Assembly (NCBI RefSeq): GCF_000187245.1
Contig: NC_027864.1
Location: forward strand, 1,054,001-1,118,000
Reading direction: 5' to 3'
Length of the DNA stretch: 64,000 nt
Source: Ogataea parapolymorpha DL-1
Lineage: Eukaryota; Ascomycota; Pichiomycetes; Pichiales; Pichiaceae
Below are positions 14,972-16,818 of this stretch, piece after piece. A program made the position numbers and the translations under genes. The notes under the pieces are model-generated. The model searched no databases. It was given only the letters and a program-made list of their open reading frames with translations, and was not told where the DNA came from. Position 1 is the stretch's first letter, and the number at the start of each line of letters is the position of its first letter.

Positions 14972-16818
14972 CTACTCGGTTCTCTGCTTCTTTGGCAGCA
15001 AGTCGTCCTCCTGCTCGGCCTCGTACTCTGCCTGCTGCTCGGCCTCGGCACGCTCCTCGCGCTCGGCCCGCTTTCTCTTATACGCCGCCTTTTTGTCCAC
15101 TCCTGTGCGCTCCTCAGTGTCCTCTGGAGGCGGCACAAACCACGGAATCTTTCCCCTGTTGAAATCGGCAATCACCTGCTTGGCCACTCCGCTCTCGTCG
15201 GGCTCGCCTCCCTTCAGCAGTCTTCCATGCTTGCGCGCCAGCAGCTCAATAAATTCCGTCGAATTTTTCCACCCCTTGATCTCGTAAGTTCTTTCCAGAT
15301 GTTTGCGTTCGCACTTGGCCAAAAGATCTGGAATAAACTGTTCCGGGTTCGAAACGTGCTCCACACGCACAACACCGCGGAACAGAATGTCTGCCTCGGT
15401 GTCTTTCGTGGATGGCGGCACGATTCCCGGACAGTCGATTAAAAAGATTCTTTTCATCAACGTAATGTACTGCCACACCTTAGTTTCTCCCGGAATAGGG
15501 GCCACCGTGCACACCTTCTTGCGTCTCAACGTGTTGATGATGCTTGACTTCCCTGTGTTTGGGTACCCAATGAAACCAACACTGATCTGTTTTCTGTCCT
15601 GGTGAAGAACGGAAAACTGACGCAGCAGCTGGATCAGCGATCCTTTACCAAACGAATTGGTGATACTGGCATGGAACGCCAGAGTTGGGTAGTCCTTCGA
15701 CAAGTGTTTCACCCATGCAGCCTAAAAAGTTAGTAAAACGAAGAGAAAGAGCGTTTGAATGTTGGGCCTTTTACTACGAAGAAGCCGGTAACTAAGACTC
15801 CTTCAACTCATAAAGGCCCAAAACACCATGTTGCCGGCTCCAAAACGGAGCACAGCAGGGTGTCGGACAACATCAAAACGACACCGACCGACGATTGGCG
15901 AACATGATCTCCCAAAGTTGTAACAGATAAACCATATTGGCAGATGGAATATCCTGACAAAAAACTTTGGTAGCATGGTGCCATTCAAACGTGGAAAAAA
16001 AATGGTATACTTACAGCAACCCATGTGGGAACCAAATCGCACTTGTTCAACACAAAGATCAGATGCTTATGAGGACACTCCTTCTTGATGTACTGCTCGA
16101 CAGACTGGCACCGTGTTCCTAGCGGGTCACGCGCATCCAGCACGTGGATAACCACGTCCGACGAGTCGATCACTTTGTACAGTTCGTTCCAGATTCTCTT
16201 GGACTGGCCCTTGGAGAAAATGAATTCCTTGGCCTCCGCGCTGAATTCATCGGTGTCGATACCTCCCATAAGTCCGAGCGTGGGCTTGAGCTCCTGTTTC
16301 TCCTCATACTGTGTCTGTTCCGCAGTGGTGAGCTGAGCCAGCTCTTCCAGAGAGGAAGCCACCGTGGTAGGCTTCTTGCGCTGGGCCTTAGGGCCAAACG
16401 TATGTTCGAACGACTCCGTTTCCAAAATACGCGCGCTCGGAGATTCGCTCGTGTCCTTCTCGTCCAAAAGCGACATAGGCAGCTTATTTCTTTTCAGCAG
16501 CACAGTGTACGAGTCGTCCTTCTTGTCGCCCATGGCCTCTCTGAAATGCGTCAGAGCGTCTTGTGCAATCACTCTGGTGTTACCGAACCACCGTCTGTTG
16601 GGGTCCACTCTGGCCGTTGGGGCCTTTGTGTCCTGCAAGTAGGCAGCCTTGATAATTTCACCCTTTGCATTCCTCACGGCCTTGCCCTCCTTGTACATGT
16701 TTAGATGCTTCACCTTCTTTGCATCTCTGTAAAAGTTTTCTCCCTTGACCCTGAGATTACCATCCCGCAAATCGTTCTGGCGCACCCGACGGGCCTTTTC
16801 TGTTTTCCCAGTAGCCAT
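14972..16818 (-). CDS. NOG2: NOG2, nucleolar GTPase for 60S assembly (two exons)
   Basis: Exon 1 is 16015-16818 and exon 2 is 14972-15721, joined in phase 0 to give 517 aa (S. cerevisiae Nog2 has 486). The join reads CDLVPTWVA|AAWVKHLSKDYP, as in yeast Nog2. It is a circularly permuted GTPase: the G4 motif NKCDL comes first, then G1 (GYPNTGKSS) and G3 (DCPG). Nog2 sits on pre-60S particles and must leave before nuclear export. The C-terminus is basic and Glu/Ala-rich. The 5' splice site is GTAAGT and the branch site TACTAAC. The ATG at 16818 is chosen because it gives the family N-terminus (MATGKTEKARRVRQNDLRDG); the frame runs on upstream to 16935. Confidence 0.95.
15722..16014 (-). other. 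NOG2 intron, 293 nt
   Basis: The intron is bounded by GTAAGT (reading down from 16014) and TTTTTAG (ending at 15722). Its branch site TACTAAC lies at 15729-15735, leaving 7 nt to the 3' cut. It hosts an H/ACA snoRNA. In S. cerevisiae the NOG2 intron hosts snR191. Confidence 0.95.
15757..15975 (-). ncRNA. snR191: intronic H/ACA snoRNA, snR191-like
   Basis: The 5' hairpin has a lower stem CCAAAGTT/AACTTTGG (15963-15970 with 15912-15919). Its pocket is GTCA (15955-15958) and GTTAC (15920-15924), closed by an upper stem GGATA/TATCT. An H box AGATCA follows at 15905-15910. The 3' hairpin has a perfect stem TTGGGCCTTT/AAAGGCCCAA (15812-15821 with 15762-15771). Its pocket is GAGT (15806-15809) and TAGT (15773-15776), with an ACA box at 15760-15762 and 3 nt after it. 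The pockets fit GUAAC-UA-UGAC and ACUA-UG-ACUC of 25S helix 69, the two sites known for snR191. About 80 nt of extra helices lie between H box and 3' hairpin. The 5' end is approximate. Confidence 0.88.

What the first reader, a model, noticed from the sequence alone, without database searches (positions are those of the whole stretch)
15757..15975. Intronic H/ACA snoRNA in NOG2 with both guide pockets fitting helix 69
The NOG2 intron folds into two hairpins with an H box (AGATCA) and an ACA box at the expected distances. The 5' pocket (GTCA, GTTAC) pairs with UGAC and GUAAC around the first uridine of GUAACUAUGACUC. The 3' pocket (GAGT, TAGT) pairs with ACUC and ACUA around the second. These are the two uridines (2258 and 2260 in S. 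cerevisiae 25S) that snR191 modifies, and snR191 also sits in the NOG2 intron there. Host gene, intron and both targets would thus be kept over a very long time. About 80 nt of extra helices lie between H box and 3' hairpin.
Basis: partly seen in the sequence, partly recalled or inferred. Interest (0 to 1): 0.75.

Follow-up and report, generated by a model that had tools for sequence, protein, structure and literature searches.

The report
Known yeast snoRNA in NOG2 intron

Summary
Rfam's snR191 model (RF01263) matches window 15757-15972, minus strand, end to end at 81.7 bits (cut-off 46), the only match reported in the genome. It lies in a phase-0 intron (15722-16014) of a clear Nog2 orthologue. 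The "80 nt of extra helices" is the three-way-junction domain of the Rfam consensus, not an addition. Host, intron position and both targets are in print. No shuffle of 20,000 equals it, but it was chosen post hoc, from one sequence, without relatives. The genome's own 25S rRNA could not be examined, and no RNA data were available.

The parts
14972..16818 (-). NOG2 host gene: exon 1 16015-16818, exon 2 14972-15721, 517-aa protein
   Evidence: Spliced translation, ORF end; phmmer to yeast Nucleolar GTP-binding protein 2 (3jct_m) 834.3 bits, E 3.2e-250, query residues 1-474
15722..16014 (-). NOG2 intron, 293 nt, phase 0 after residue 268
   Evidence: GTAAGT donor, TACTAAC, TAG acceptor; the spliced junction NKCDLVPTWVA|AAWVKHLSK aligns without a gap to yeast Nog2
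16009..16014 (-). 5' splice site GTAAGT
15729..15735 (-). branch site TACTAAC; branch A 8 nt from the last base of the intron
15757..15972 (-). snR191 H/ACA snoRNA, 216 nt (ends as given by the model)
   Evidence: RF01263, 81.7 bits, model 1-273/273; only match reported in the genome
15911..15972 (-). 5' hairpin; guide strands GUCA (15955-15958) and GUUAC (15920-15924), predicted target U2258
15905..15910 (-). H box AGAUCA
   Evidence: 14 nt after the start of GUUAC
15821..15904 (-). middle three-way-junction domain, 84 nt; two hairpins capped CGUUUUG (15874-15880 and 15841-15847)
   Evidence: Same architecture in the Rfam consensus; folds alone this way at -32.0 kcal/mol; of 33 consensus pairs 10 unchanged, 2 changed on one side, 15 changed on both sides and still paired, 3 broken, 3 gapped
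15763..15820 (-). 3' hairpin; guide strands GAGU (15806-15809) and UAGU (15773-15776), predicted target U2260
15760..15762 (-). ACA box; predicted mature 3' end 3 nt later at 15757
   Evidence: 14 nt after the start of UAGU
15982..15991 (-). 5' arm of intron-flank stem (CGUUUGAAUG)
   Evidence: 10 perfect pairs with 15752-15761, mean pair probability 0.995; 0 of 20,000 dinucleotide shuffles reach 10
15752..15761 (-). 3' arm of intron-flank stem (CAUUCAAACG); begins with the last two letters of ACA
15974..15981 (-). 5' flank stretch GCACCAUG predicted to pair with CAUGGUGU (15823-15830) in the middle domain, displacing that domain's closing stem in the full-intron fold
   Evidence: pair probabilities 0.92-1.00 in the full intron

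Best explanation
This is the snR191 orthologue of this budding yeast, carried in an intron of NOG2. After splicing, debranching and trimming, the RNA of about 216 nt would assemble with the H/ACA proteins. It would guide pseudouridylation of the two loop uridines of 25S helix 69 that correspond to U2258 (5' pocket) and U2260 (3' pocket) of S. cerevisiae. Shown here: the family match, host, intron signals, boxes, pocket letters and spacing, and the family's middle domain. Inferred: that the RNA is expressed, that its target sequence is the usual one, and that both sites are modified.
For: Full-length Rfam match well over the cut-off, the only one reported in the genome. Correct intron in an unmistakable Nog2. 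Box spacing of 14 nt on both sides, and joint pocket patterns in 0 of 100,000 shuffles. Against the Rfam consensus, 26 of the 61 pairs displayed changed on both sides and still pair, spread over 7 of 8 helices. S. cerevisiae snR191 is listed as the guide for 25S-2258 and 2260 in helix 69 (table passage of PMC8307265).
Against: Of the 61 displayed pairs 5 are broken and 3 gapped, and at upper-case (strongly conserved) consensus positions 65 of 91 letters agree, so 26 differ. The unconstrained fold does not show fully open pockets. No 25S rRNA from this genome could be examined: an exact search for the 13-letter helix-69 sequence found 0 places, and six requests with the LSU model did not complete. 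No expression or modification data were available.
Confidence: 0.97

Rival explanations
1. The intron keeps an snR191-like fold, but only one pocket still works in this yeast; the other site is guided by another RNA or is unmodified.
Against: Both pockets match their targets without mismatch at a 14-nt spacing, and both guide regions have the letters of the family consensus, GUCA/GUUAC and GAGU/UAGU.
Confidence: 0.02
2. The RNA is a decayed or unexpressed relic, and the match reflects ancestry only.
For: No expression data were available; 5 of 61 displayed pairs are broken.
Against: 26 of 61 displayed pairs are kept through changes on both sides; splice signals, boxes and guide letters are intact; [quoted passage not shown] 2003 (seen in a reference list).
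Confidence: 0.01

Closest known systems
snR191 (Rfam RF01263), S. cerevisiae NOG2 intron
   Same: Host gene, intronic location, H/ACA boxes, both guide pockets, middle three-way junction, targets 2258 and 2260
   Different: 216 nt here against a 273-position model and 274 nt in S. cerevisiae (PMC12389098 passage); the middle domain is shorter (79 letters against 98 in the aligned stretch); a 10-bp flank stem outside the snoRNA that I could not compare with other species
snR191 in Candida species
   Same: Intronic in NOG2 of C. albicans and L. elongisporus (PMC5033589, passages)
   Different: In C. parapsilosis and C. orthopsilosis snR191 is encoded outside the NOG2 intron; here it is inside
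NOG2 intron snoRNAs of distant fungi
   Same: Conserved intron position with an H/ACA snoRNA in eight intron-poor fungi, Ustilago maydis included (PMC8476143)
   Different: I did not see those sequences; one of them (M. miltonrushii) is partly of low confidence in the paper's own legend

Membership tests
snR191 (RF01263) | Covariance-model match above the curated cut-off | tested here: met
   81.7 bits against 46, full length
snR191 (RF01263) | Host intron in NOG2 (usual, not invariable: it has moved or been lost in some yeasts) | tested here: met
   Intron in spliced Nog2 orthologue
snR191 (RF01263) | Two pockets complementary to helix 69 around U2258 and U2260 | tested here: met
   GUCA/GUUAC and GAGU/UAGU at 14 nt from H and ACA boxes. 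The target letters are those given in the finding for S. cerevisiae, not read from this genome
snR191 (RF01263) | Middle three-way-junction domain between H box and 3' hairpin | tested here: met
   (folded alone and with boxes held open; not in the unconstrained fold)
snR191 (RF01263) | Pseudouridylation of both sites in vivo | not testable with these tools
   No RNA data available
Box H/ACA snoRNA | Hairpin - H box (ANANNA) - hairpin - ACA three nt from the 3' end | tested here: met
   AGAUCA at 15905-15910, ACA at 15760-15762; the 3' end itself is inferred from the model; the ANANNA rule is from recall
Box H/ACA snoRNA | Bound by the H/ACA core proteins | not testable with these tools
   None
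Nog2 / nucleolar GTP-binding protein 2 | Near full-length similarity to Nog2 chains of solved structures | tested here: met
   834.3 bits over query residues 1-474 of 517

The most novel reading that the evidence does not exclude
The intron ends form a splicing clamp that doubles as a timer. In the unspliced or linear intron, a perfect 10-bp stem between the flanks cuts the path from 5' splice site to branch point from 285 nt to about 45 nt. It also buries the last two letters of the ACA box and, with the next 8 nt of the 5' flank, opens the middle domain's closing stem. Trimming six letters into the 5' arm frees the ACA in the predicted fold (masked with the RNA starting at intron nt 28, free at nt 30). 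Splicing would thus come before snoRNP assembly, and host mRNA and guide would be made from one transcript without hindering each other.
Probability: 0.2. Interest if true: 0.45.

Novelty: already known. Interest (0 to 1): 0.17.

Why it matters
As found, it adds one more yeast to a well-documented case of a guide RNA and its host gene staying together. The host link has a point of interest: in S. cerevisiae the Rpf2 tail lies between the Nog2 GTPase domain and helices 69-71 on the assembling subunit (PMC7385084, passages), and the NOG2 intron encodes the guide for helix 69. If the flank stem is real and kept in relatives, it would show how an intron balances splicing against assembly of the H/ACA particle inside it.

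Tried and rejected
Extra-domain idea: I asked whether the 84 nt between H box and 3' hairpin are a novelty of this yeast; rejected, because the Rfam consensus has the same three-way junction, longer.

Second copy: the genome search with RF01263 reported one match at E up to 0.001 (379 first-look candidates, 28 scored).

Own rRNA target: an exact 13-letter search found nothing, so the rDNA repeat is probably missing or withheld in this assembly; six LSU-model requests did not complete. The target pairing therefore rests on the conserved helix-69 sequence. A 15-letter version of it turned up in 6 papers (search listing only), several by title on the R2 element, which inserts in 28S rRNA genes of animals.

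Relatives: NOG2 protein scans gave one bacterial stretch in genome contigs (38% identity over query residues 317-367, L002, not used) and no relative in viral contigs. No other yeast sequence was fetched, so neither the flank stem nor the CGUUUUG loops could be tested across species.

PIP2 binding of S. cerevisiae snR191 (PMC12389098; abstract, outline and passages): considered as an explanation of the middle domain. The one contact residue named in the passage I saw (A31) lies in the 5' part of the RNA and comes from docking, so I did not use it.

Host-target link: a paper on Nog2's rRNA contacts centres on G2922, and its text has 0 hits for H69, helix 69 or pseudouridine (PMC9851907, passages); so a direct Nog2-H69 function is not supported by it. 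Another Nog2 paper shows 0 occurrences of H69 in a search listing (PMC9981671).

Papers: Badis et al. 2003 (PMC1370443) is not held, seen only as a reference. snR191 with Hansenula gave 0 papers. Nog2, H69 and pseudouridine together gave one paper, not opened. A search on splice-site-to-branch-point structure failed on its terms, and I made no other for that question. So I make no claim that intron-end stems are new; from recall, such stems are known in yeast introns.

Full report
What is there. On the minus strand, 15722-16014 is a 293-nt intron with GTAAGT, TACTAAC and TAG, in phase 0 after residue 268 of a 517-residue protein. The spliced protein aligns over residues 1-474 with yeast Nucleolar GTP-binding protein 2 at 834.3 bits, E 3.2e-250, and the junction ...NKCDLVPTWVA|AAWVKHLSK... 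runs through without a gap. The host is therefore NOG2. The genome has 7 contigs and 8,874,589 bases. From recall this fits a methylotrophic Ogataea yeast, but I did not test the species.

The snoRNA. A scan of the whole window against all 4227 Rfam families gave one match above a family cut-off: RF01263, snR191, at 15757-15972, 81.7 bits (cut-off 46), E 9.6e-17, model positions 1-273 of 273. The same model reports one place in the whole genome, this one (379 first-look candidates, 28 scored). By inspection these letters pair without mismatch with GUAAC-U-A-UGAC (U2258) and ACUA-U-G-ACUC (U2260), taking the target as given in the finding. A review table lists snR191 as guide of 25S-2258 and 2260 in helix 69 (PMC8307265, table passage).

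Chance. The stretch 15724-16019 folds 6.4 standard deviations below its shuffles, none of 200 reaching it. The 5' and 3' pocket patterns with box spacing arise in 64 and 380 of 100,000 mononucleotide shuffles of the 216 nt, and together in none. In the window, both strands, the 5' pattern occurs once and the 3' pattern four times; they come together at one place. The patterns were taken from the finding, so this measures rarity and is no independent discovery; the Rfam score is the independent test.

The 'extra' helices. The 84 nt between H box and 3' hairpin (15821-15904) fold alone at -32.0 kcal/mol into a closing stem and two hairpins. The Rfam consensus has the same three-way junction, with 98 letters against 79 here in the aligned stretch. 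One search leaves two stretches undisplayed (27 and 37 model positions). In the 61 consensus pairs displayed, 25 are unchanged, 2 changed on one side, 26 changed on both sides and still paired, 5 broken and 3 gapped; for the middle domain alone the figures are 10, 2, 15, 3 and 3 of 33. Letter identity over the displayed columns is 101 of 190, and 65 of 91 at upper-case consensus positions. This compares one sequence with a consensus, not a set of sequences, and the alignment was fitted to the model's structure. Both middle hairpins end in CGUUUUG when the domain is folded alone or with the boxes held open, and the consensus has the same letters at both places (CGUUuUG and cgUUUug). I read nothing that explains that conservation.

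Folds against the simple picture. In the unconstrained fold of the 216 nt, short pairs half-close the pockets, part of the H box is paired and the middle domain pairs differently (-79.5 kcal/mol). With guide strands and boxes held open, the Rfam architecture appears at -75.4. H/ACA proteins and the target would have to pay about 4 kcal/mol; this is inference.

Flank stem. The predicted pair probability averages 0.995 in the full intron. Between the 36-nt and 27-nt flanks, 0 of 20,000 dinucleotide shuffles give 10 consecutive pairs; the highest was 9, in 4 shuffles. A mononucleotide version with a 38-nt 5' flank gave 0 of 5,000, highest 9 in 1. The next 8 nt of the 5' flank pair with the middle domain. 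With nt 24-42 of the intron held single-stranded it folds at -82.5 instead of -98.1; with only nt 34-42 held open, at -92.6. In the full intron the second and third letters of ACA are unpaired with probability 0.01 and 0.00; with the 5' end at intron nt 28, 0.03 and 0.02; at nt 30, 0.92 and 0.91; in the 216-nt RNA 0.97 and 0.96. The first letter of ACA does not fit a switch: it is about 0.3 unpaired throughout. The stem would shorten the 285-nt path from 5' splice site to branch A to 23 + 22 nt outside the stem. I chose the two flanks after seeing the pairing, have one sequence only, and found no relative to test it. I give it 0.2.

What is known. The NOG2 intron, with an H/ACA snoRNA, holds its position in eight intron-poor fungi (one prediction partly of low confidence), and the position is kept in 72% of fungal species (PMC8476143, passages). 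snR191 orthologues were reported in all Saccharomycotina, though a table in the same paper lists the NOG2 structure for Saccharomycetaceae and Candida species; by RT-PCR the whole NOG2 intron is also maintained after splicing in S. cerevisiae (PMC4937481, passages). The intron and snR191 are lost in Naumovozyma dairenensis, and snR191 lies elsewhere in Kazachstania africana (PMC4202332, passages) and in two Candida species (PMC5033589, passages). Removing the intron from S. cerevisiae NOG2 caused a fitness defect on glycerol medium at 37 C without changing NOG2 mRNA or protein (PMC10667330, passages). So the finding is correct, and already known in kind, host, position and target.

Host and target. 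In Nog2 particles helices 68-70 are still immature, and the Rpf2 tail lies between the Nog2 GTPase domain and helices 69-71 (PMC7385084, passages). That a protein acting near helix 69 carries the guide for helix 69 in its intron is suggestive. Against a direct link, the Nog2 mutational study that I opened centres on G2922, and its text has no hit for H69, helix 69 or pseudouridine (PMC9851907, passages). My search for Nog2, H69 and pseudouridine together gave one paper, not opened; I cannot say whether the link is unpublished.

Noticed in passing
window 15982-15991 and 15752-15761, minus strand: Perfect 10-bp complement between the intron flanks around snR191, masking the last two letters of the ACA box in the full-intron fold.
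   Followed up: partly
window 15874-15880 and 15841-15847, minus strand: Both hairpins of the middle domain are capped by CGUUUUG, the same letters as the Rfam consensus at both places; no function known to me.
   Followed up: partly
window 15722-15735, minus strand: Branch A only 8 nt from the end of the intron. From recall, a short distance of this kind marks S. cerevisiae introns that accumulate as stable linear introns; NOG2's is reported as one (PMC10667330 passage).
   Followed up: no
window 13752-14873, minus strand: Neighbour ORF with a glutamine-rich N-terminus that looks, by eye and recall only, like the POP2/CAF1 deadenylase.
   Followed up: no
whole genome G000: No exact copy of the helix-69 13-mer GTAACTATGACTC in 8.87 Mb, so the rDNA repeat is probably absent or withheld in this assembly.
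   Followed up: partly
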